Assembly: GCA_028753945.1 (NCBI GenBank)
Contig: JAPNXP010000004.1
Location: forward strand, 3,906,001 to 3,970,000
Source: Hexactinellida sp. DTS-2022
Lineage: Eukaryota; Porifera; Hexactinellida
Length of the DNA stretch: 64,000 nt
Direction: 5' to 3'
In this document: positions 2,896-50,980 of the stretch, one piece after another
Layout of the letters: every line of letters begins with the position of its first letter
Position numbering within the stretch: position 1 is the stretch's first letter
Position numbers and translations under genes: made by a program
Notes under the pieces: model-generated
Database searches by the model: none
The model's input: only the letters and a program-made list of their open reading frames with translations
Told to the model about the DNA's origin: nothing

Positions 2896-2947
2896 ATTCC
2901 AATACTGGGCCACTATACTATAGTATAGTCGGCACAGTAATAAAAAA

Positions 2948-3060
2948 TCCAAAATTGCAGCTGTGCCGACGCATGTTCCTTTGGTGGCACTATATTTTGT
3001 TGGTGGGTCATTGATAGTGCCTCCAAAAGAACATGCTGTCAGCACATCTGCAATTTTGGA
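2948..3060. repeat. Hairpin repeat, copy 3
   Basis: Same inverted repeat family; the paired copy in the second array unit is at 6313-6425. Confidence 0.8.
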
Positions 3061-8599: not shown

Positions 8600-8786
8600 T
8601 AATAATAATAAAGGCAGTGATTCCAATACTGGGCCACTATACTATAGTATAGTCGGCACAGTAATAATAAAGGCAGTGATTCTAATACTGGGCCACTATA
8701 CTATAGTATAGTCGGCACAGTAAAAATAAAGGCAGTGATTCCAATACTGGGCCACTATACTATAGTATAGTCGGCACAGTAAAAAG
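8600..8786. repeat. Three tandem copies of the ACTATACTATAGTATAGT module
   Basis: A block of about 55-60 bp, 'ggcagtgattccaatactgg' then 'gccactatactatagtatag' then 'tcggcacagtaataataaa', is repeated three times. Each copy has the perfect 18-bp palindrome (8636-8653, 8695-8712, 8754-8771). Other exact palindromes lie at 300-317, 2112-2129, 2177-2194, 2912-2929, 6153-6170, 6218-6235, 6277-6294, 23404-23421 and 63731-63748. Degenerate copies are near 16790, 19670, 45820, 59220, 59270, 59515 and 59565. Confidence 0.85.
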
Positions 8787-9140
8787 TAAACTGACTGTGA
8801 ATATTCGAATTGAGGGCCTTTACTTAATATTATACATAAAACCAAGCATACGGTGCTTGTATTAAATTAAACGTCATAATTTATTACAGCCTCAAAAATG
8901 ACACAGTGTTTGCCATTAGTTGAACATCCTTAATTCAAATACTGTGCTAATACTTCTTTACTTTAGTATATAGCTCGACCTGTAGCGGACCGTGTAAATG
9001 TAAAACATCATTTGATGGACAAGATCATTTACTTCTAGACATTAATAACAGATATTTCTTTCATTATGGACTATTGTTCGAATATAGTGAATTGATGACA
9101 TTATCAAGGAATACACTTCATGCTTATTTGAGGTATTTAT
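8787..9140. other. Spacer without recognised gene
   Basis: AT-rich sequence between the array and a small foldback repeat. I see no coding signal or named repeat in it. Confidence 0.5.
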
Positions 9141-9258: not shown

Positions 9259-9833
9259 TTTATTTATATTTACAGAATAAAGAATTACAATATATGTTTA
9301 GATTTCGCTTTTCGAATTTTACTAATGTATAAGTCTCTATATTTATTGAACTAGTACTTGTATTTTAATAAGAAAAGATATTTAACCCTTAAATTAAGTT
9401 AACTTAGTTGATATAACTATGTGATATATTATACAGTCAACTGCCGTTATATCGAAAATCAGAGCGGTCAGGCCGGTCAGGCCATGGCCTGACCACTTTA
9501 TAACTGCTTCCGCCGCAGCTGATATATATATACAGTGGAGCCTCCCATAACGGCCCCTCCAAATAGCGGACAACCTCTAAATAACGGACAACCCTCGTGG
9601 CACGGATTGAATTTAGCATATGTCTAATAGAAAAGCAACCTCTAAATAACGGACGACTCCGAACTCTAAATAGCGGACAGTGATTGGGTCCCGAATTGAA
9701 TTATTAGTACTTTTTTACCTCCGAATAACGATCAAATGCCTATCGAAATAATTATACGCCATGAATTCATGATAGCTAGAAGATTTTTATCATTACCAAA
9801 GTATATGTACAATATTATGATAAATTTAGCTCT

Positions 9834-10232
9834 CTATACAAATCCATTGGTCTTCAAAGAGTAAATTATTTCTTTCATTTTATCAATGTATTCCCTGGGT
9901 CCATAAAGCTGATATATACAGGGGATTTCTAGTCCATAACCAGCTCCTCTATTAATTTTCTCCCCTATGACTTTTGCATAAGCGATGTTGACATCTCTCT
10001 TTAGAAATCGAGACATGTATGGTGCGATATTATAAGGTACATGTCCTACAATAGTCTCTTCAATATGAACGGCTACTGCATTTTTATCTTTTGGGTTTGT
10101 CGTCTCTCTCTTTAAAGAAAGTGATTCACCCAGCACTGGAGTCCAACTGTCTTTGTAAGCATGGTAACCCCTTATGTATGACTGGATCTCTAAAAGTTCC
10201 AGTTCTTTAGGTATGCTGTGTTTACAAGCCAT
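9834..10232 (-). CDS. HIRAN-domain small protein inside the Tigger element
   Basis: Intact 132-residue ORF with an ATG start at 10232. Almost the whole protein resembles a HIRAN domain: 'IRGYHAYKDSWTPVLGE' at about residues 20-37, the hallmark 'RETTNPKDKNAVAV' at about 42-55, 'VGHVP' at about 62-66, and 'GLEIPCIYQLYG' near the C-terminus. HIRAN domains of HLTF/Rad5-type proteins bind single-stranded 3' DNA ends; this role is family knowledge, not shown here. The ORF lies between the left subterminal repeats and the transposase, in the opposite direction, so both could use the shared gap at 10233-10597. It is unbroken although the neighbouring transposase has stops. No intron is evident. It could also be a host-derived cargo gene. 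Confidence 0.7.
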   Translation of the reverse strand: MACKHSIPKELELLEIQSYIRGYHAYKDSWTPVLGESLSLKRETTNPKDKNAVAVHIEETIVGHVPYNIAPYMSRFLKRDVNIAYAKVIGEKINRGAGYGLEIPCIYQLYGPREYIDKMKEIIYSLKTNGFV

Positions 10233-10597
10233 GTCAAATAGATTAATTATAATTGAAAGTTTTCCTGATATCTTTGATCCTTTATACGTTTATTGAGGAG
10301 ACAGCAATGCATACAAAAATATTATAACTTGTTATTAAACCACATTTTCAAAGTAATGTAATGAAAACTACATATTAATTGAATATTATACAGTGAAACC
10401 AGTGCGAGGTATTTCCAGTTTGCCACTATAATCTACCTAAAATCCTCAATCTTTTCTTCCAGTCCTTGGCGGGTTTTAAGCTTGTTCCACTTCCACCGTA
10501 CTTAATTTATTTTCCAAATAAGAAAAATAATGACGAGTGGGATTAGAATTGACTTAATTTTACTTGAATTGTATTAATGTTGCATTTAATTAATAGG

Positions 10598-12241
10598 ATG
10601 ACTAGTCTAGTACCAAAGAAGAGAAAATTTCTAAACCTGAAGAAGAAAGTTGAATTGATTCACTTCACTGAAAAGAATCCAGGCATCAGTATCAGAAGCA
10701 TAGTGAAAATTTTCACGTGTTGTAGGACTCAAATTGCAAGCATCCTCAAGAACAAGGAATCAATTCTTACCATGTATGAGTCTAACGCATCTGTGGATAG
10801 ACTACATGTAAATGTGATTGGTCGTAAATCACAATTCAGTGAAATAAACAAAGTACTTTATGAATGGTATATCTTAGCATGCTCGAAGAATATATTTCCA
10901 GGAGGACCTCAGCTGATGGAAAAGGCTAAAGAAATTGCCGAGCGCATTAAGATTTCAAATTTTAAATGTTCTCGGGGCTGGTTACAGAAGTGGAAATTGA
11001 GATATAATGTGAAACAGTTGACTATTTGTGGAGAGTCAGGTGATGTGCAGTGACCAACCCTAAGTTCATGGAAAGAGCGGCTCCCCGAGATTCTACAGGG
11101 CTACACAAAGGAAGATATATGGAATATGGATGAGACGGGTGTTTTTTGGAAGGCTCTACCCCATCGCGGATTTGGGGAAAAGGGAAAGGAATGTAAAGGA
11201 GGAAAGAAAGTCAAACAACGTGTAACTGTTGCGTTCTTTGTTTCCGCAGCTGGTACGAAAGAACAGCCTATTTTAATATGGAAATCTGAAAATCCAAGAT
11301 GTCTTTAAGGAATAAATAAATATGAATTGCCCGTAAATTATTTCAGCCAAAAAAAAGCATGGATGACTGGGGAAATCATGGAGACAGTCCTAAAAAAATT
11401 GAATCGCCGATTGATAGGTACTAACCGTTTCATTATACTATTGATGGATAATGCAGGCTGTCATCCCGATAAATTGGCAACAAAGTTTAGCAATATCAGA
11501 ATTACTTTTTTGCCTGCTAACACCACATCAAAACTTCAGCCTCTTGATTTGGGCATTATTCAAAATTTCAAAATGTACTACCGTCGATTTTTATTGAGAT
11601 ATGTTCTCTCAAAGATTGACTCATGTGATACTGCTTCTGATGTTGTAAAGTCGGTAAATATACTTTCGGCAATTAGATGGGTGAGCGAGGCTTGGTCTTT
11701 AGTTCATTCGGAAACAATTTCTAAATGTTTCCGAAAAGCTGGAATCTTAAGTGATGAGATGGATGTTGTTACTGTTGGATATGATGATGATAGTGAAGAT
11801 CCATTTCTTGAATGTGATGTCAGAGGAGAGATTCAAACTCTTATTGAGAGGTCCATGGCTGTTGATGATCGTTGTACTTTGGAGGAGTATCTACAAGGAG
11901 ATGATAATCTCCTTGTGTTCATAGACCAAGACAATGAAAATTGGGATGTCAACTTTATGGAAGAACTTGGGCTAGATCAGCAAAAAGATGAAGATAATGA
12001 TTCTGATGATTCGGATCGAGTAACTGGTACAGAAGGAGTAGTTGATATTGATGTTGAACAACCTCGATCCAAGGTAACTAATTTCAAGGAGGCTCTACTG
12101 GCACTTGAAGATGTGTATACATTTCTGCAGGCCCAGAAAGGGAATATTCAAGCCATAAACAGTGTTGGCTCTGCCATAGACTCAGTTGCGAATCTCAAGA
12201 TACAATACTCTGTGCAAACTAACTTGCATAACTATTTTTAG
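10598..12241 (+). pseudogene. Tigger/pogo transposase (CENP-B HTH + DDE_1), two in-frame stops
   Basis: One continuous frame, interrupted by TGA at 11051-11053 and TAA at 11306-11308. The N-terminal part has a psq/CENP-B-type helix-turn-helix ('KKKVELI..ISIRSIVKIF') and a second CENP-B-type HTH ('GRKSQFSEINKVLYEW', 'GWLQKWKLRYNV'). The catalytic part shows D1 in 'NMDETG', D2 in 'LLMDNAGCHP' and D3 in 'LQPLDLGIIQ', with 32 residues between D2 and D3. The C-terminus is acidic. An upstream ATG at 10577 is in frame, but 'MTSLVPKKRKF' at 10598 looks the better start. Both stops are single-codon lesions with coding sequence resuming directly, so the decay is recent. Confidence 0.88.
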
Positions 12242-12540
12242 TCATCAAGTAGTGTTCCCTTATAGTCCAATTCCCTAATTGAAAAATCTCGAATTGTCTA
12301 GTTATCTAATTGTCCAGTTCTCTAATCGTCATGTTCACCATTTGTCCACTTGGGGCCCCAGCGGACAATTATTGACTAGTAATTATGTACAGTGTGATTA
12401 GGGATGTATTAGCACTATTTGATAGTGTATTATAGTACTATTAGCTAGTATAAGGCTCAACCTCCGAATAGCGGACAACCTCTAAATAACGGACAACGAC
12501 TCCGGTCCCAGTGTCCGTTGTTCAGAGGCTCTACTGTATA

Positions 12541-12713
12541 GAGTAGTGTTCGCATAATAGCAATTGCTCTAATAGCAATATTGCTCTATTAGCAAGTTAT
12601 TTTTTGTACCCAAGCGAGCATTTAATGTTAAATTTGTTCCTCTAATAGCAAGTTCGCCTATTAGCAAGGAAATTTCGTGCAAAATGCGACTTGCTATTTG
12701 GCGAACACCACTG
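12541..12713. mobile_element. pogo-like MITE abutting the Tigger element
   Basis: 173 bp with inverted ends 'gagtagtgttcgcataatagc' (left) and CAGTGGTGTTCGCCAAATAGC (right, reverse strand), flanked by TA at 12539-12540 and 12714-12715. It sits two bases beyond the Tigger end, so the two TA duplications are adjacent (TATA). Internal runs of 'taatagcaa' are inverted between the halves. Confidence 0.8.
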
Positions 12714-12860
12714 TATATATATATATAATTTCATTTTAATATCGTTTAGAGCCAAGAACAAAAAGCTGCAAAGAATGGGAAGAAAAGAAACACTCCGTTA
12801 TCACATATTCCAACATGGATGGAATGCTTATTTGAGAATGATTAGTATCGACTATAAATC

Positions 12861-33474: not shown

Positions 33475-35022
33475 ATGGCTACCGCTCCGATCACAGTACC
33501 CCTTCTACAGAAAGGCGACCGAATCGAGGATTGGCGGCACCTTTTCGAGGCAAGCACTCAACATATGATTACGGCAGAGGATGGGGAGAAAAGAGCAATT
33601 CATTTGTTACCAGCTTATGTGAATAGAGACATTGCTGACCGCGAAGCAGTGAGAGATATCGTGAAGTCTGCGAACAGTCTGGAAGAGGCACTCAGCAACC
33701 TAGCAGGGGTACTAGACCCCCCGATGGACACCTTCATAGCCATGCAGGAAGTCAGTCGATTACATTGGCAACCTGGCCAAGACATAGGGGAATATTTCTT
33801 CCTCCTGAAACGAAAGGCTACCTACGCCAAATTAGGGTTGAAACACGTCGCTTCCTTATTGGCCGCGCAAGTACCAAGAGATGTCCAAACGAGAATTAAA
33901 GCGGAGGTAGTCGGAATAAACGACAGTCTAGAACACGCAGACGCTCATAAACTCATCCGGTCAGTTAAAGCTGAACTAACAGAGAAAGGCTATGCTCTGA
34001 ATAAAGGAAACCGCAACTTTGAATCAATCCCGAAAGTAGCAGTTATAGAGCAAAACGATGCAGGGAATGACGATAGTCTAGAACCGGCAAACCAAGTCGC
34101 TTACTTGAAGGGACAGCCCAATAATTGGAGGCCCAAACAGACAGGCAGATCGAGGCGTGCAAGCGGCAGCGGATGCTATATTTGTGGGGATAGACACGCG
34201 TGGAGATTCTGTCCTGAAAAGAGGTGCCCCTCCTGTGGGCAGAAAGGTCACATTTTGAAGGACTGTTCTACGAAGAAACCTTCAGGAGACAATCGAAAAG
34301 TATTTTGTGTTGGTCAATCCCAGTCACTCGACTACCTGGCTGTGGTCTTACCCGTGAAGTTAGATGGCGAACCTGTATCAGCGTTACTCGATAGCGGCGC
34401 CGGTCCTTCAGTCGTAGATTTACAAACCGTTCGGAATTTGGGACTTGAAACACGCATGCGCAACATTACAAGCAAGATATTCGGTTTAGCTCAAGAACCG
34501 ATAAACGTTGTCGGGAGATTAGAGGTTCTATTAGACCTCGGAAACGATCAAACCGTGCAACACTCTTTCGAAGTATTGAACGGAGTCCAAAACACTTGCA
34601 TTTTAGGGAGAGACTTACTCTCTAAGTTCGGGGCTTTGGAATTTGACTGGATAAACCATCAAGTACGCGTAGGCGACGTTTGGAAGAATTCACACATTAC
34701 GATAGAAGGGGCTGAACCACTAGTGAAAGCTTATTTGGCAGAATCGTTTCTCCCAACTTACCAAGATTGTAATAGCTCGAGCAGTACAGTTGCAGGAGAA
34801 AATAATTGTACCGGACCAGGCTTTAACATTAACCCAGGCCTATCTAACCAACAAAAGTACAAATTGACAACTATGCTTAGAGAGTTATCCGGCGTATTTG
34901 CTGACAACCCAAAATGCCCGAGTATCGCCAAGGGAGTAAAACACAAGATTGACACAGGGGATGCACAACCTATTAAGCAGAGAATTTACCCAGTGGCGCC
35001 GGCGGTCGAAAAAGAAATTTGA
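33475..35022 (+). CDS. Gag and protease part of the Ty3-type element
   Basis: 515 codons from ATG at 33475. Residues 1-200 form a helical Gag region ('DPPMDTFIAMQEVSRLHWQP', 'LAAQVPRDVQTRIKAE'). Two zinc knuckles follow: C-x2-C-x3-H-x4-C from residue 234 and C-x2-C-x4-H-x4-C from residue 251. An aspartic protease signature 'ALLDSGAGPSVV' has its Asp near residue 306, with 'CILGRDLL' downstream. The end already contains the beginning of reverse transcriptase, so the stop at 35020-35022 is inside the polyprotein. One missing T in the run at 35016-35018 would explain it. Function: particle formation and polyprotein cleavage. Confidence 0.85.
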   Translation: MATAPITVPLLQKGDRIEDWRHLFEASTQHMITAEDGEKRAIHLLPAYVNRDIADREAVRDIVKSANSLEEALSNLAGVLDPPMDTFIAMQEVSRLHWQPGQDIGEYFFLLKRKATYAKLGLKHVASLLAAQVPRDVQTRIKAEVVGINDSLEHADAHKLIRSVKAELTEKGYALNKGNRNFESIPKVAVIEQNDAGNDDSLEPANQVAYLKGQPNNWRPKQTGRSRRASGSGCYICGDRHAWRFCPEKRCPSCGQKGHILKDCSTKKPSGDNRKVFCVGQSQSLDYLAVVLPVKLDGEPVSALLDSGAGPSVVDLQTVRNLGLETRMRNITSKIFGLAQEPINVVGRLEVLLDLGNDQTVQHSFEVLNGVQNTCILGRDLLSKFGALEFDWINHQVRVGDVWKNSHITIEGAEPLVKAYLAESFLPTYQDCNSSSSTVAGENNCTGPGFNINPGLSNQQKYKLTTMLRELSGVFADNPKCPSIAKGVKHKIDTGDAQPIKQRIYPVAPAVEKEI

Positions 35023-37768
35023 GTCAGGTTACGGATATGATATCTAACGGGATTTGTCGACCTTCAAACTCACCTTGGGCGAGCAGAGTCTTATTGGTGT
35101 CCAAGCGTGATGGTAACAGAAGGTTTTGCGTTGACTTTCGTGAACTAAACAAGGTTACTCGCACCGACTCTTATCCCATGCCCCATCCGAAAGATATTCT
35201 AGATCGGATGTTTGGTGATACATACTTTTCATTTTTGGACGGAGCTTCGGCATATTGGGCAATAAAAATATCGGAGGAAGATAAATTCAAGACAGCGTTT
35301 ACGACCCCAAAGGGCCTTTACGAATTTAATAGGATGCCTTTCGGGTTAGTAAATAGTGGTTCAACCTACCAGCGATTAATGGACGAGACTTTGAGACCAG
35401 TAATCCACGCAGACCCATACGTTGACGATGTTTGCGTGCATTCATCAGAATTTGACACTCACATTGCAGACCTTAAATCCACTTTGGAGGCATTGAGTAA
35501 GGCGAACGTCCAACTCAGGCGGGATAAATGCTCTTTCGGGTATCCCGAAGGGGAATTCGTCGGCCATATGATCACAGCAGATGGTCACCACCCCACCCCA
35601 AGGCTCGTAGAGAAGATCAAGACAGCCGAGAGACCAAGGTCAAAGAAAGAGTTATTAAGGTTCCTGGGATTAGTTAATTATTACCGAGAGCATGTCCAGG
35701 GATTCGCCGATATCGCAGAACCATTATATATATTGACACGTGATTCAGCAGAATGGATCTGGAACGAAACCGCTGAGACCGCTTTCAACAGCCTCAAAAA
35801 CAAGTTAATTAAGCCACCGGTAATGCTAGCGTTCCCAGATTGGAACTCTGAGTTTACATTACAAGTAGTGCTTCTGCGATAGCCGTTGGAGGCGTATTAT
35901 CCCAAGAGGGGACAGACGGGCGATTGAAACCAATCGCATACTTTTCATCAGGGCTAACCCCAGCTCAAAAGAAGTACTCAGCAGGAGAATTGGAGTGCTG
36001 GGCGGTAATTGCAGCCAGTAGAAAATTCAGAAAGTATTTACAAGCAGCTCCTAGCATTCAGTTCCTTTCTGACCATAACCCTCTCGTGTGGCTACGACGA
36101 CAAAAGGACCCACGGGGGAAGTTCCCGAGATGGATACAGGAACTGGAGATCCTCGCTTACGAGATCAAATACGTAAAGGGTGTCGAGAATGGGCCGGCTG
36201 ATTTCCTTTCCAGGATTAGTACTGATATTGATTGGGAAGTGAACGACGAGGAAGAACATTTCGAAAGACACATTTACCAGATTAGCTATGATCCTAATTG
36301 GCACAACAAAATGAAGAGATGTCAAGAGGAAGATGCTCTTGTATCTTCGGCGATTAGTCAACTCCGGGAAACGAACCAAGTCACTCAGGGCCAATTCAAG
36401 AACCAAGTTGGAATGACCTTAAGGGAAGGATTACTGTGCAGAGGAAGTAAAGTCGTTATACCAAGGGTTATGAGACAAGAAGCAATCTCGATAGTGCACA
36501 GTATGGGTCACCCAGGTGTCGACAAGACGACACGCCTTGTCAGAACCCGATTCTTCTGGAAGCGAATGGATTCTGATATTGATGAATATTGCAGGGGGTG
36601 TCTCATATGTCACAAGAATAAACCCAACAGCAACCCGAAAGAAAAGCTTATCCCAATTAATGTTTCCAAGAGGCCTCGAGAGATGATTGCCTTCGACGTG
36701 GCCACTTTACCGTGGGCATCATCCAACCACCGTTATTTTTTACTCATGGTGGACCTGTTTTCCAAATTCGTAGAATTGTATCCCATGGCAGACCAAGAGT
36801 CGTCCACTATCGTGAGAGGAATACTCGATGGTTGGGTTTATAGGCATGGTCCTCCAAACTTCATACTTAGTGATTCGGGGCCTAACGTGGACGGGAGCGA
36901 AATAAGGACCGCCTTAGCAATGCACGGAATTGAGAAGAAAAGAAATTCGCCTTACCATCCAGAAGGGGACGGCCAAAGCGAATGTGGTATTCAGGCAATA
37001 AAACAGATCATGCGGTGTATGCTTGAGGAGAGACAGGTGGCGAAAGATAGTTGGCCCACCATCCTCCCCGAAGTGAGTTACATAATGAACTCTATACCTA
37101 ATATGAGTACAGGTTTTACACCCTACAGGGTTATGTATGGAATCGATCCCAAACCTTTGTCGACCGCCTTTTTGGAAACTAGTACTCGAGAGGGATATGA
37201 TTCTATACTCGATTGGGTAACGGAATTGGAACTCATGGAAGATATGATCAACGACGAAGTGGGAGAAAATCTTACCCAATCTAGGGCCACTATGAAAAAT
37301 TACTTCGATAAGGGAAAAGTCGATTCCAAGATAGGTATTGGAGATTTAGTACTACTGAAGAACCAGAATAGAAAGAGTAGTCTCGACCAAAAGTTTGACG
37401 GGCCGTATGCAGTAATACATAGAAAGGGACCTAATGTTTTGATCAAACAAATAATAGGGAAGGAAAGGTCCCTAGAAAAGTGGATACATCTAGATAGATG
37501 CAAACCTTACCTTCCAAAACTCTACTTCCCTAATTGCTACAGGACCAAACCTGCAGACATTGGCCTACCGGAAGGATACGGTTCAGAAGACGATCTTAGC
37601 GAGGAAGAGTACACAACCGTCCCGGTACAGAACCCAGAGTTCGAAGAAATCGTATCAGACGTAGGACCTCGCACATCAAACAGGATAAGGAAGCCATCCA
37701 GGAAACTGATCGAATCAGAATGGCTAGATGACCTCTCTGATGACAGTTTTGACGACGAGAGTTTGTAG
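35019..37768 (+). pseudogene. Pol of Ty3-type element: RT, RNase H, integrase
   Basis: The RT continues in the -1 frame from 35019 ('RPSNSPWASRVLLVSKRDG', 'CVDFRELNKVTRTDSYPMP', catalytic 'YVDDV' at 35418). RNase H begins at about 35860, where a one-base deletion at 35868-35869 falls in the codon expected for its first Asp. The frame resumes ('AIAVGGVLSQEG', 'YSAGELECWAVI'). Integrase has an HHCC finger ('HSMGHPG', 'CRGCLICH') and the D,D,E core ('FDVATLPW', 'LSDSGPNVDG', 'HPEGDGQSE'), then a GPY/F-type module ('FDGPYAVIHRKGPNVLIKQ'). I see no chromodomain. Two one-base lesions with only two LTR mismatches mean a young but probably inactive copy. Confidence 0.88.
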
Positions 37769-44494: not shown

Positions 44495-45742
44495 ATGGCA
44501 AGTGTCGATAGCGTGGGAGACCAAAGCTTCCATTCTCGTGTCCACAGAGTACGCGAAGAGATACAAGTTAAGTTTCTACAAGCTCACAAGATACTACAGG
44601 ATAGAGAAGCAGATCTCTTAATTGAATTAAAGCGACTAGTAGATGAATACGAAGGAGATGAACTATTAGATCAGATAAAGCAATTGTCAGATTCAAAGGA
44701 TACTCTCATGACAAGTCTCAAAGGAAATGAGAACACAGAAATCCTTAATCAAAGTATAGCCCCCATAAATACACGCATTCAAGAATTTGAAATTAAACTC
44801 CGAACAGCAAAAGATACCTACAAGTTTGTATCATTGGAATGGGATGTAGAGCTAGAGAAGAAACTGAGTGTAGCAGGTGAGATACGATTTAATGGAATAC
44901 GTGACTACAAGGAGATAGAAGATCCTGTTGTAGTATTTGGGAAACACAGCGAAGAGGTATCTCCACCTGGTGTGTTTTGCTATCCTAATGATATTGCTAT
45001 CAACCCTGTTAATAACAATATCTACATTTGTGATTCAGGAAACAATCGTGTGCAAGTGTACAATGCATCTGGAGAATACCTATTCCTTTTTGATGAGAAG
45101 ATGAACGGCCCATCTGGAGTGTGTATCAGTCATAACAAGATATATGTAACACAGTATTATTCCCATTGTGTCAACATGTATTCCACAGATGCGAAATTTG
45201 AGAAATCTGTTGGCTGTAAAGGAACAAAATGGCTGGAATTCAACAAACCAAGAGCTATTGCTATTTCTAAGGAGCACAGAAGAATCTACATTGCAGAATT
45301 TGACAATGATCGTGTTCAATGTTTGAATCTAGATCTGACATTCCTCTCCATCATAAGTAATGTGTATGGTGCTTTGGATGTTAAACTGACTGCTGCAGAG
45401 ATAGTATTACTTTCTAGTAACAACCCTTGTGTTTATATGTACAACTATTCAAATCAATTCATTAGCCTAATGATTCCCTGGGGAGAAAGTAATCCTCTCA
45501 TTTCCCCAAGTCGGATATTTATAACTGAAGCGCTAAACAATATTCTTTTTACGGATAATGATGCTCACTGCGTATGCGTATTTTCTTATGAAGGAAAGTA
45601 TTTGCATAAATTTGGCAAAAGTGGCGAAAACCGAGGAGAGTTTATTCATCCCAGAGGTTTATCAATTGATTCTCAAGGAAGGATTCTAGTTGCATCTGAG
45701 AATCCCAATCAGTGTGTCCAGAGCTTCCTTTCTCAATACTAA
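44495..45742 (+). CDS. Coiled-coil NHL-repeat protein (TRIM-NHL-like without RING)
   Basis: Intact single-exon ORF of 415 residues with ATG at 44495. Residues about 15-125 are strongly helical and charged, consistent with a coiled coil. From about residue 150 come repeated NHL blades: 'FCYPNDIAINPVNNNIYICD', 'NNRVQVYNASGEYLFLF', 'KPRAIAISKEHRRIYIAEFD', and a closing 'FIHPRGLSIDSQGRILVASE'. That fits a six-bladed propeller. NHL propellers bind RNA or protein partners; TRIM-NHL proteins add RING and B-box domains, which are absent here. Such coiled-coil NHL proteins are numerous in sponges, from memory. No stops or frameshifts; the gene lies between two large transposons. Confidence 0.85.
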   Translation: MASVDSVGDQSFHSRVHRVREEIQVKFLQAHKILQDREADLLIELKRLVDEYEGDELLDQIKQLSDSKDTLMTSLKGNENTEILNQSIAPINTRIQEFEIKLRTAKDTYKFVSLEWDVELEKKLSVAGEIRFNGIRDYKEIEDPVVVFGKHSEEVSPPGVFCYPNDIAINPVNNNIYICDSGNNRVQVYNASGEYLFLFDEKMNGPSGVCISHNKIYVTQYYSHCVNMYSTDAKFEKSVGCKGTKWLEFNKPRAIAISKEHRRIYIAEFDNDRVQCLNLDLTFLSIISNVYGALDVKLTAAEIVLLSSNNPCVYMYNYSNQFISLMIPWGESNPLISPSRIFITEALNNILFTDNDAHCVCVFSYEGKYLHKFGKSGENRGEFIHPRGLSIDSQGRILVASENPNQCVQSFLSQY

Positions 45743-47298: not shown

Positions 47299-50200
47299 TC
47301 ACTTTGACTGCAACTTTAGTAGCTTTTTATTCGATCTTGTAGGATTGTTTAGGCCACGTTTAGAATTCAAATTTCTTATTTTATTCTTCAATAAACAATT
47401 AGTAGTAGCAGAGAGAATTTGAGCCAGATAGTACATAAAAGGTTTCTGGCAGTCAGGACATTCATTTCTCCAGAATTCGAAACTAACAAATTCTATTCTA
47501 GATATCGCTAATTGAATTAAAACCTTTCTGTCTGATTCAGCAATGAATTGTCTCAACAAAGCTGGGTTCTGTTCAAGAATAGTAAGTATTTGCCATTGAA
47601 TAGTAACTGCGCTTATTACATCATTGGATGGGTATTTACAGGGTTTCATCTAGGCGTATGCGACGCGCCTCCAGGCGCGTAATTTCAAAAGGAAACTTTT
47701 CTAGGCGCGCGAAAATCGAGAGATGCTCCCATAGACGTAATACAAATTGAGCATTTTAGGCGCGTGTGAGCGAGCTCAAACTTAATCTAGGCGCGCGGGA
47801 AATTTTGCCTGGATGAAAGCCTGGGTATTTAAGTCCACCCCGGTCAGCTAAGTGAATTAGTGTAAGATCGGACTCTTCACACTCGAGAGAGAAACATTCT
47901 AGTTCAGTGAGTAGAGATACACAATGATTACAATATGTAGTGAATTTAGACTTCTTTGAATAGAGCATATTCTTACAGATGTTGTGAACTGCATATCCAC
48001 CAATAAAAGCCAATGCTTGGCGGATTTCCACTGTAGGTGAGAATTCAAAATTTTCATGTAGAAGAGAAGAATAAATGTTCAAGTCTGATTGGCGAACTCC
48101 AGCATCCTGTTGAACTGAAAAACCTCTAACGAATTCCTTTAGTGACGACTCATATTTGCCATCTTGGGCTTGGTACAACTTCAGAATGTTACCAATCTTG
48201 ATCCGTCGCTCGCTCTCAAGAACTTGACAAAAGGAAACGTTGTATTGGCAACCAGACATTAGCCGGTAAACGCCAAAATGCTTCTCTAGAGAGTCGTTTT
48301 GTAAGAATCCGGTTAACACATAGGAAAATCCACATTCATCGCTGGTCAAATGATTGATAATTTTAGGAATTACTTTAGTAGTGTGAATTAAGCTGGTAAA
48401 GGTCTGTGGGCTAAGTTTGCCGGCTTTTCCTGTACAGCTATGTATTTTCCAGTTCTCAAGCCAAGAACAAAATTTTGCAAGAAATTCAAAACGTTCATCT
48501 TGGTGTTTGAATACTTTGGAATCAGAATCACGTAGACGAATATCTTTACCAGGACAATGAATGTTGCACATCTTCCAAAATCTGGATATAAGATCGATAA
48601 ATTGATGAGTCTGGTTGAAAATTTTGTTTCTCTGGTTGAATACAAAGATAGCGTTGTGTGTTGATTGATCCCAAACTGCTAGAGCTAAGGGTACACTTTG
48701 TCTCTCAAAGGTTGATGGCCAGACTACTTGTGAAGTTAACTTGTGGGCTGTCTTAGCATTTGAAAATTGCTCGAACTTGTACAAGTTCCTGATATCCTGG
48801 AAAGAAGCCGTTGCTAGTTGATAAGGAAAGGTATTATTGAAATAATCAGTGATAGATGGGAAAATAAGCGTGGTAAGGGGATCTTTCTGATTTATCCAGT
48901 TATTCCTAATACATTTAACAATATGTACTGGATCGAACATCAAGAATATAGCTCGAGTGGGATCAGCTGGGTTCGGAAAACTAAACTGCAAGTTAGATGA
49001 ATTAGCTAACGATTTGAATAAACTCACGTTCAACTGGTAATCGTCAGTGCAGATTGCTATTACCTTTAGGCCACAACTTTCGATGTCTATAATTACTTGA
49101 TTAATTACTGGAAGTAATTCAGAAGATTTAGCATTACAACATGGAAGGAGTCTTACAATTTCGGACCATTTGGTGAAGAGACTTGAAATTTGAAAAGCCA
49201 AAACAGTTTTAGCTGGATCCAGGTCAGAAGATTGGCTGACAGACGTGATGGAATCGGAATTAATAAAAGGCGAACCAAAGATTCTTCCTCCCTTGTAGGT
49301 ATACTTAGACTGTACGTGAATTTCATCAAGTTTTAAAATAACATGTCTTTTGAACTTATCAAAATTCTGGCACTCAACTTTCAAATAATCAACAAAATTT
49401 GTATCTAAACCAATGTTAGAATAGAGTCTTCTGAGTGTTGAAGGATGGGGTAAACTAAGACAATCCAATGATTGCAAATATCTGTAACAACCAGAAGATA
49501 TCAATTGAGCTTTAAGGGAGAAGACTAATGTCAAGACGTTATAGCGACGTCTTGTTTTCGACATATCTAAGTTTTCGAGCTGACAGAGAATAAATTGCAA
49601 ACGATTAAGTAAAGTTTGAGAATCATGTATTGTGGTATCTTCGTTAGTTGTTAACTTTCCTACTGTGTACTTAACTCTATCGATAGCTTTGGTGATTCCT
49701 AACTCAATATCATCTGGCTTTTGATACGTGTCGAGTTCTTGTATTAATTGAGAAATTTGACGCATGTCAGTAATCTGAGAAATCCGTGTTTGAATTTGTA
49801 CCTCGTTAAGAAAACATTTGACATTCAATTCTTCATTTAATATTATCTGGTGAGACATTATTAGTAGATGTCCAGACAAGATTTTTTTGAAGATGTGCAG
49901 GGTAGTTGGACTAGAGCGAAAATATAACCATTCTTCATACAAGTTTAAAATTGTATATTTCTGTTGCATTTCATCAATGCTCATCACGGAGTACTTTTCA
50001 TTCTCTGTTTGGTGTTCAGCAATACTCAACTGAAGCGCTTGACGAAGATGTCGGATATCTAATTCATCGCGGTCAAGACGTTCAGGAAGTACATTTTGAT
50101 CTTGTAAGTAAGATGGGCAATTTGGTAGAATAGTAGGCTTAGCACCCTTGCGAAGACCAGGCTTACGGGGAAAATTCTTGATAGAACCATCGCCTTGAGG

Positions 50201-50410
50201 AATTGCAACAGAAAGTAACAGGTCCTGCTCACTAAAATGTTTAGCGCAGATGAAAATTCTGCACAATTGCCAGGCATCATCTCGATGTAAAAACTTTTTC
50301 CACTCATCTTGTACATCCTTTGGCCAGTGATGTAACATCTCAAAAATAGGAGTGTATTCAGTACCATCATAATTAGAAGTGCAATTAGCAACACTACACC
50401 TGTTTGGCAT
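47299..50410 (-). pseudogene. P-element (THAP) transposase split by a MITE
   Basis: Start chosen at ATG 50410, giving the THAP domain at the N-terminus: 'MPNRCSVANC' with Cys-x4-Cys, later 'FICAKHF' and the hydrophobic end. An in-frame upstream ATG (50611) lies in the terminal repeat and is unlikely. The catalytic core shows 'KLDEIHVQSKYTYKGG', 'VIAICTDDYQLN' and 'MFDPVHIVKCIRNNW', and the C-terminal part 'CGFSYVLTGFLQNDSLEKHF' as in THAP9/P transposases. The frame is open to 'LADRGGLKYP', where a 183-bp MITE begins; it ends at 47756 in MITE-derived residues. The true C-terminus resumes at 47628 ('SNDVISAVTIQWQIL') and stops at 47299. No other lesion is evident. Confidence 0.9.
47639..47821. 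mobile_element. 183-bp MITE inside the P transposase gene
   Basis: Inverted ends 'gggtttcatctaggcg' and 'gcctggatgaaagcc'; the interior has 'aggcgcg' palindromes. TGGGTATTTA is duplicated at 47629-47638 and 47822-47831, so the codons for Lys-Tyr-Pro appear on both sides of the break. Confidence 0.88.
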
Positions 50411-50980
50411 GATTCTAGTATATATAAAAATGAAAGAAAAGATAAATAAAGAGTAGAAGCATAAAAGAGTAAGTGGTGTGGTAAATAGAAAGGCACAAAG
50501 AATGTGTAGAAAAGAGATTGATCTAGACTGAATGGTAGTAAACTTATATTCAAATATTGTGGGTGGTTTACAAAATAGACTTGAAGTAATCCATGGTAAT
50601 GGAAAAATCAATCAGTGAATAGTCTATAGTAACGTAGTCTGTGAATATTTTATTATCAAGAAAATTAGAAAATGTTTATATAGAATATAGAATAGCAAAT
50701 ATGTATATGTTATGTCGATTTTGTCAAATGTTGATTTTACAAATTCAACATTAATCACCAGAACTAAAACAAGTGTTCGACTTTGGCTATATTACTCGGA
50801 TAAGCCTAGATATAATTGCATTTTGTTCAGAATTCGCTTCATCCAAGTGTATACCGACTTTTATGAAGAAATTTTTTGCCAAAATGAAATTATTTACTAG
50901 AATGAAAAAATATTCCAGGGTGATTTTGCAAAATCAACGAATAAAATATGCCGATTTTATAAAATCGACATTTCTAATTA

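What the first reader, a model, noticed from the sequence alone, without database searches (positions are those of the whole stretch)
9533..12536. Tigger transposon carrying an intact HIRAN-domain gene, divergent from the transposase
Seen: TIRs with TA flanks enclose a minus-strand 132-residue HIRAN ORF and a plus-strand Tigger transposase, separated by 365 bp. The HIRAN ORF has no lesion, but the transposase has two stops. Known: HIRAN domains of HLTF-type proteins bind 3' single-stranded DNA ends, and Tigger elements normally encode only a transposase. Inference: the HIRAN protein may help handle cleaved ends or repair, acting in trans, or it may be captured cargo that spreads the domain family. 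I am not aware of a described HIRAN-carrying Tigger element.
Basis: partly seen in the sequence, partly recalled or inferred. Interest (0 to 1): 0.78.

Follow-up and report, generated by a model that had tools for sequence, protein, structure and literature searches.

The report
Two-gene Tigger transposons carrying HIRAN
A lineage of cut-and-paste jumping genes carries, beside its moving enzyme, a second small gene for a HIRAN-type (DNA-end-binding-type) protein that selection has kept as the elements diverged, which suggests that it helps the element to move.

Summary
Window 9533-12536 is a complete TA-flanked Tigger/pogo-type element with an intact 132-aa HIRAN ORF head-to-head with a transposase that has two in-frame stops. 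HIRAN identity is supported by Pfam, by profile search (HLTF HIRAN best in the PDB) and by a low-confidence fold model. In this 112-Mb genome four diverged families (A-D) carry HIRAN in the same position: 9 of 9 contiguous TIR-complete, transposase-bearing elements of these families among 46 stretches held (many fetched because they held HIRAN), and 23 of 23 HIRAN places with DDE_1 within 6 kb are head-to-head (0.4 expected by chance). Between families A, B and C the HIRAN ORF is under purifying selection (dN/dS 0.10-0.28) with a dN close to the transposase's; copies within a family drift. Two other complete elements of this type, about 2.0 kb, lack it. So HIRAN is a long-kept second gene of the element, not recent cargo. 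A role at cleaved 3' ends is my best guess, untested; HLTF's end-binding residues are only partly conserved. My literature searches listed no such element. New variant of a known kind.

The parts
9531..9532 (.). left TA target-site duplication
   Evidence: TA also at the ends of other copies
9533..9560 (+). left terminal inverted repeat (CAGTGGAGCCTC...; inner border approximate)
9556..9593 (+). two subterminal repeats of the CCTCYAAATARCGGACAA type; probable transposase binding sites (inferred)
   Evidence: 7 matches in the whole window, all in the two ends of this element, 0.07 expected by chance
9639..9680 (+). two further subterminal repeats (9639 and 9663)
9834..10232 (-). HIRAN gene, 132 aa, intact
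10233..10597 (.). 365-bp spacer between the two ATGs; presumed bidirectional promoter (inferred)
   Evidence: spacer 290 bp in one family B copy and 235 bp in one family D copy
10598..12241 (+). Tigger/pogo-type transposase frame (547 codons plus stop), broken by stops at 11051-11053 and 11306-11308; catalytic pattern DD32D
10616..10774 (+). CENP-B_N DNA-binding domain (PF04218)
10835..11017 (+). HTH_Tnp_Tc5 DNA-binding domain (PF03221)
11213..11731 (+). DDE_1 catalytic domain (PF03184), with one TAA inside
   Evidence: G000:C13:3917213-3917731
12461..12497 (+). two subterminal repeats at the right end
12509..12536 (-). right terminal inverted repeat (read inward CAGTAGAGCCTCTGAACAACGGACA; inner border approximate), with one inverted copy of the subterminal repeat
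12537..12538 (.). right TA target-site duplication

Best explanation
SHOWN: this is one copy of a two-gene Tigger-type lineage. Within TA-flanked terminal repeats it encodes a pogo/Tigger-type transposase and, divergently, a free-standing HIRAN protein. The pair has been kept together through families A, B and C (and, with less certain ancestry, D), with purifying selection on both genes between A, B and C. INFERRED: both genes are expressed from the short shared spacer, and the HIRAN protein is an accessory transposition factor acting in trans. Most likely it binds the 3'-OH ends exposed when the transposase cuts (on the excised element or the donor flank), holding or shielding them until integration or repair. 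Because it lacks a motor, it may also compete with host HLTF/Rad5-type proteins that use their own HIRAN to strip proteins from cut ends.
For: Complete elements at different places carry it: 9 of 9 contiguous TIR-complete, transposase-bearing elements of families A-D among the 46 stretches examined. 23 of 23 HIRAN places with a DDE_1 within 6 kb are head-to-head, 0.37 such neighbours expected by chance. HIRAN dN/dS between families 0.10-0.16 (A-B), 0.21-0.28 (A-C), 0.14-0.18 (B-C); Fisher p 3e-9 to 3e-14 for three pairs tested; transposase 0.08-0.10 for A-B and B-C. HIRAN and transposase dN are similar: A-B 0.34-0.36 and 0.34-0.35; B-C 0.24-0.27 and 0.27; A-C 0.25-0.31 and 0.21-0.22. HIRAN family and fold. 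The positions of HLTF N91, D94, K95 and H110 are invariant in all 9 rows of A1 (residue numbers N90, N91, Y93 and 110 from PMC4666394, D94 and K95 counted by me). Literature: HLTF HIRAN binds a 3'-OH end, is needed to remove Cas9 from cut DNA, and an isolated HIRAN domain inhibits that removal (PMC11237066, passages).
Against: No expression, binding or transposition data. The HLTF N90 and Y93 positions are not conserved (T/D/S and K/V), and the N90/N91 double change was the one that fully impaired HLTF HIRAN function (PMC4666394, one section read). Complete elements of this type without HIRAN exist in the same genome (about 2.0 kb), so HIRAN is not needed for such transposition in general. Many stretches were fetched because they held HIRAN, so 9 of 9 is partly selected. 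Transposase pieces of families A-C without HIRAN exist: C1:11192479 and C17:321910 (both lacking the left end) and C11:13886543 (a fragment seen only). The family D transposase does not group with A-C (0% of bootstrap trees; AU p 0.08-0.10), so a single origin is not settled. dS is high, so dN/dS values are rough; for D they are not interpretable. Whether the host makes an HLTF was not tested. All evidence comes from one genome.
Confidence: 0.6

Rival explanations
1. HIRAN is passenger cargo captured from the host or a microbe, without a role in transposition.
For: Elements of this type lacking it exist here. Free-standing HIRAN-type proteins occur in phage-type contigs and PHROG families, so a donor is easy to imagine.
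Against: Purifying selection between families A-C at a level near that of the transposase; a constant head-to-head place in four families; no complete transposase-bearing element of families A-D without it among the stretches held.
Confidence: 0.12
2. The HIRAN protein serves regulation or counter-defence rather than DNA ends: it binds element ends or the shared promoter as a repressor, or blocks a host silencing factor.
For: Divergent arrangement over a 235-365 bp spacer; key 3'-end residues only partly kept; small extra proteins of DNA transposons can be regulators (recalled).
Against: No direct evidence; the HIRAN domain of HLTF binds DNA 3' ends (PMC4666394, PMC11237066).
Confidence: 0.2
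3. The HIRAN ORF is a domesticated host gene that happens to lie in transposon remnants and is kept for the host.
For: Intact ORF in copies whose transposase is broken, such as the window copy.
Against: Many copies at unrelated sites; within-family changes are not biased to synonymous sites (C pair dN/dS 0.62, p 0.30; D pair 0.67, p 0.47; the A and B copies compared differ by 1-4 nonsynonymous and 0 synonymous changes); several copies broken.
Confidence: 0.05
4. HIRAN was picked up more than once, or was exchanged between Tigger lineages, rather than inherited from one HIRAN-Tigger ancestor.
For: The family D transposase falls apart from A-C, while the D HIRAN falls among the A-C HIRANs in a small tree.
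Against: AU test does not reject one clade (p 0.08-0.10); very long branches; same head-to-head layout in D and A-C; only four outside HIRANs in the tree.
Confidence: 0.35

Closest known systems
Tigger family of pogo transposons (PMC9219625, passages; PMC7386202, passages and one section)
   Same: TA duplication, short CAG-starting TIRs, CENP-B_N + HTH_Tnp_Tc5 + DDE_1 transposase of about 547 aa, DD32D within the published DD29-36D, length about 2.6-3.0 kb.
   Different: A second, divergent HIRAN gene. PMC9219625 describes most complete Tiggers as having a single ORF; PMC7386202 speaks of one or two ORFs encoding transposases. A word search of either main text finds no HIRAN.
HIRAN domain of HLTF/Rad5 (PF08797; 4xzf, 4s0n, 5bnh, 6l8n)
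   Different: Free-standing, no helicase or RING; N90 and Y93 positions differ; encoded by a transposon.
Free-standing phage-type HIRAN proteins (L079-L081; PHROG 18569, function unknown)
   Different: 30-34% identity; not known to lie inside terminal repeats. Their neighbours were listed but not searched for transposases.
Tc1/mariner-group elements with extra ORFs: ciliate TBE and Tec (PMC7325037, passages)
   Same: DNA transposons of the wider group that carry genes besides the transposase.
   Different: [quoted passage not shown] a word search finds no HIRAN in that text.

Membership tests
Tigger (pogo superfamily) | TA target-site duplication and short terminal inverted repeats | tested here: met
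[quoted passage not shown]
   all three above Pfam cut-offs
Tigger (pogo superfamily) | catalytic spacing DD29-36D | tested here: met
   DD32D: D284 and D317 of the first row of A3; range from PMC7386202
Tigger (pogo superfamily) | place in the Tigger clade against pogoR, Passer, Lemi, Fot reference transposases | not tested
   no reference transposases used; searches compare only elements of this genome. pogoR shares the same domains, so pogoR is not excluded.
Tigger (pogo superfamily) | a single ORF (usual state per PMC9219625, not strictly defining) | tested here: not met
   second ORF HIRAN in 9 of 9 complete transposase-bearing elements of families A-D among 46 stretches
HIRAN domain (PF08797) | match above the curated cut-off | tested here: met
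   window copy 28.8 bits against 24.7; all 9 rows of A1 match at E up to 1; the 12 places of the genome scan at E 0.001 do not include family D
HIRAN domain (PF08797) | HIRAN beta-barrel fold | tested here: met
   [not shown]
HIRAN domain (PF08797) | 3'-end binding residues as in HLTF (Y72, N90, N91, Y93) | tested here: inconclusive
   N91 invariant, N90 and Y93 not conserved, Y72 outside the aligned stretch
HIRAN domain (PF08797) | binding of 3'-OH single-stranded DNA ends | not testable with these tools
   needs biochemistry

The most novel reading that the evidence does not exclude
The transposon encodes a motor-less HIRAN that occupies the 3' ends of its own post-cleavage complex and so shuts out the host's HLTF/Rad5-type translocase: an end-guard or anti-HLTF counter-measure, the natural equivalent of the isolated HIRAN domain that inhibits HLTF's removal of Cas9 from cut DNA.
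Probability: 0.15. Interest if true: 0.85.

Novelty: new variant of a known kind. Interest (0 to 1): 0.62.

Why it matters
Tigger elements are generally described as one-gene transposons. A lineage that has kept a DNA-end-binding-type partner gene through deep divergence implies that handling of cut ends, or of the host factors that clear them, can be a selected function of a DNA transposon. It would give a small natural system in which to ask what a HIRAN domain does on its own. It also warns that free-standing HIRAN genes predicted in animal genomes may be transposon genes.

Tried and rejected
Rejected: chance ORF; recent cargo capture; host domestication. The intact HIRAN against two transposase stops was considered as evidence of selection and dropped, because the two genes differ fourfold in length.

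Led nowhere: HIRAN-Tiggers in other organisms. IMG/VR scans found 3 phage-type HIRAN loci with A1 and none with a family B transposase or HIRAN; the prokaryote genome scan found none. These collections are of viral and prokaryote sequence, so this says nothing on spread among animals. The repeat finder did not report the TIRs.

Literature, ten searches: (40 listed of 3,089; 16 of 17) matched mostly other words that begin with hiran, such as surnames (my reading); ('HIRAN domain') listed 40 of 113; (with transposon) 13 of 13; (with Tc1) 0; 2 of 2; 11 of 12; 5 of 1,436; (HIRAN and transposase, whole words) 7 of 7; 8 of 1,784. No listed title or abstract start reports HIRAN in a eukaryotic transposon; the papers themselves were mostly not opened. 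Word searches of main texts found no HIRAN in PMC3537659, PMC7325037, PMC7386202 and PMC9219625. Of PMC4007536 (Capsaspora) I saw passages only; the listing counts 0 HIRAN in it. Repbase was not searchable, so a database-only description cannot be excluded.

Limits of the counts. The dN/dS for family D is not usable (saturated), and the D_C6 transposase row was taken in a wrong frame and is ignored. The own-genome DNA search scored 40 of 550 candidates, so copy numbers are lower bounds. Of the 15 HIRAN places without DDE_1 within 6 kb, three (C14:1696665, C9:376128, C5:2415461) have transposase pieces beside them or, for C9, about 12-14 kb away; the other 12 match only part of the HIRAN, at most 79 residues, and three of these lie in both-ended elements without a transposase match. 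The 46 stretches were fetched by HIRAN, by similarity to the window element, or as comparators, not at random. The tree has very long branches and only four outside HIRANs.

Full report
What is there. At 9533-12536 lies a complete element between TA dinucleotides. Its ends begin CAGTGGAGCCTC and, on the other strand, CAGTAGAGCCTC. A 16-base motif CTCTAAATARCGGACA occurs 7 times in the window at up to two mismatches, all 7 in the two ends of this element, against 0.07 expected by chance; these are probably transposase binding sites (inference). The plus strand carries a transposase with CENP-B_N, HTH_Tnp_Tc5 and DDE_1 domains, broken by two stops. The minus strand carries an intact 132-aa ORF that matches PF08797 HIRAN above its cut-off. 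The ATGs are 365 bp apart.

Does it recur? A protein search of the genome gave 43 matches to the window HIRAN, and a search with a family D HIRAN gave 22. Merged by hand into 38 places, 23 have a DDE_1 match within 6 kb and all 23 are head-to-head; 0.37 neighbours would be expected by chance. Four families can be told apart. A is the window's; B and C have HIRAN 56-65% and transposase 54-64% identical to A and to each other; D has HIRAN 24-33% and transposase 30-33% identical to the others. Their TA-flanked ends are A CAGTRGAGCCTC, B CAGGTAAACCTCCC (one end CAAGTAAACC), C CAGTRGAGWCTCC, close to A, and D CAGTCAACATCCGRTAACTCGAA. Among the 46 stretches held, 9 contiguous elements have both ends and a transposase (A 3, B 3, C 2, D 1), and 9 of 9 have a HIRAN match head-to-head with it. 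This set is partly selected, because many stretches were fetched for their HIRAN. A less biased view is the similarity search with the whole element and the DDE_1 scan: of the transposase-bearing places of families A-C that I recognised there, those without a HIRAN match near are C1:11192479 and C17:321910, both lacking the left end, the fragment C11:13886543, and pieces of interrupted copies. A further family A copy, C2:2471978-2479379, has both ends and HIRAN but is interrupted and not held whole. Three deletion derivatives with both ends hold a HIRAN piece but no transposase match (C13:3884066, C4:1878651, C12:2865416). One copy (C13:1905590-1908580) has both frames open.

Other elements of this type in the same genome. 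Two transposase-only elements with both ends measure about 2.0 kb (C5:2232447-2234415 and C2:4045636-4047683); neither has a HIRAN match, and the transposase leaves little room. The HIRAN elements measured are 2.6-3.0 kb (7 elements), or 4.1 kb for the interrupted B copy at C4. In a transposase tree with 7 HIRAN-bearing and 7 other rows, A, B and C are one clade (100/100), while D stands apart; holding all HIRAN bearers together is not rejected (AU p 0.08 with all rows, 0.10 without one long row). In a small HIRAN tree the element HIRANs, D included, form one side of a branch against three phage-type HIRANs and an HLTF piece (100/99), with D on a long branch near B. So either one old HIRAN-Tigger ancestor, or later exchange or a second capture; this is open.

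Selection. Nei-Gojobori dN/dS of HIRAN is 0.10-0.16 (A-B), 0.21-0.28 (A-C) and 0.14-0.18 (B-C); Fisher tests on one pair of each give p between 3e-9 and 3e-14. The transposase gives 0.08-0.09 (A-B) and 0.10 (B-C); its A-C value cannot be computed because dS is saturated. dN of the two genes is similar: A-B 0.34-0.36 against 0.34-0.35, B-C 0.24-0.27 against 0.27, A-C 0.25-0.31 against 0.21-0.22. dS is high, so the ratios are rough. Copies within one family show no such bias (C pair 0.62, p 0.30; D pair 0.67, p 0.47; the 3 A and 4 B HIRAN copies compared differ by 1-4 nonsynonymous and 0 synonymous changes), as expected for copies no longer under selection after insertion. Selection therefore acts on the moving lineage, not on the host loci (inference).

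How it most likely works. Shown: two genes kept together inside one mobile unit, both constrained between families A, B and C. Inferred: the HIRAN protein acts in trans in transposition. In HLTF the HIRAN domain binds a 3'-OH end, is required to remove Cas9 from cut DNA, and the isolated domain inhibits that removal (PMC11237066, passages); its cavity holds one dinucleotide between Y72 and Y93, and of the mutants tested only the double change at N90 and N91 fully impaired its function (PMC4666394, one section). Cut-and-paste transposases of this group expose 3'-OH ends with short overhangs (recalled). A motor-less HIRAN could hold or shield these ends, or keep host HLTF-type proteins off. Against: the N91, D94, K95 and H110 positions of HLTF are invariant here, but N90 and Y93 are not (D94 and K95 counted by me from the printed alignment). 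I put about 0.85 on a real, selected second gene of the element and about 0.35 on the specific 3'-end step; the 0.6 given above is for the two-gene element with an accessory role in transposition.

Comparison with the known. By domains, TA duplication and DD32D it fits Tigger as described in PMC7386202 and PMC9219625, though pogoR shares the same domains and no reference tree was made. PMC9219625 gives a single ORF for most complete Tiggers (passage). Accessory genes are known in ciliate Tec and TBE elements (PMC7325037, passages). Word searches found no HIRAN in three pogo/Tigger papers and one DIRS paper, and ten library searches, several of them capped lists, showed no report of it (calls in Tried and rejected); that library lacks most subscription papers, and Repbase was not searched. 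I call it a new variant of a known kind.

Noticed in passing
window 33475-37768: Three consecutive ORFs with aspartic protease, reverse transcriptase, RNase H and integrase domains: a retroelement of the gag-pol type. Described only.
   Followed up: no
window 47759-50611, minus strand: 951-aa frame with THAP and TNP-like RNase H domains, as in P-element-type transposases (the P-element link is recalled).
   Followed up: no
window 44495-45742: 415-aa ORF with NHL repeats, possibly a host gene exon.
   Followed up: no
window 12539-12717: A short stretch with inverted ends (AGTAGTGTTCGC... / CAGTGGTGTTCGCC...) abuts the right TA of the Tigger; looks like a MITE of another family next to it (read, borders approximate).
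   Followed up: no
window 8603-8790: Tandem array of a 59-bp unit, 3.2 copies, 96% matches, each with a palindromic ACTATACTATAGTATAGT core.
   Followed up: no
window 12089-12100: The end sequence CAGTAGAGCCTC recurs exactly, on the minus strand, inside the transposase coding frame, flanked by GC not TA; a match is found there in 8 family A copies. Possible internal binding site or chance.
   Followed up: no
G000:C1:9898061-9898247 and similar places: At least 9 short copies (about 190 bp) made only of about bases 1-147 and 2926-3004 of the window element: MITE derivatives of family A; 7 more places match the left end alone.
   Followed up: no
L079 4908-5270, L081 4818-5237: HIRAN-type proteins of 120 and 139 aa in IMG/VR contigs; PHROG families 18569 and 8043, of unknown function, match the HIRAN region.
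   Followed up: partly
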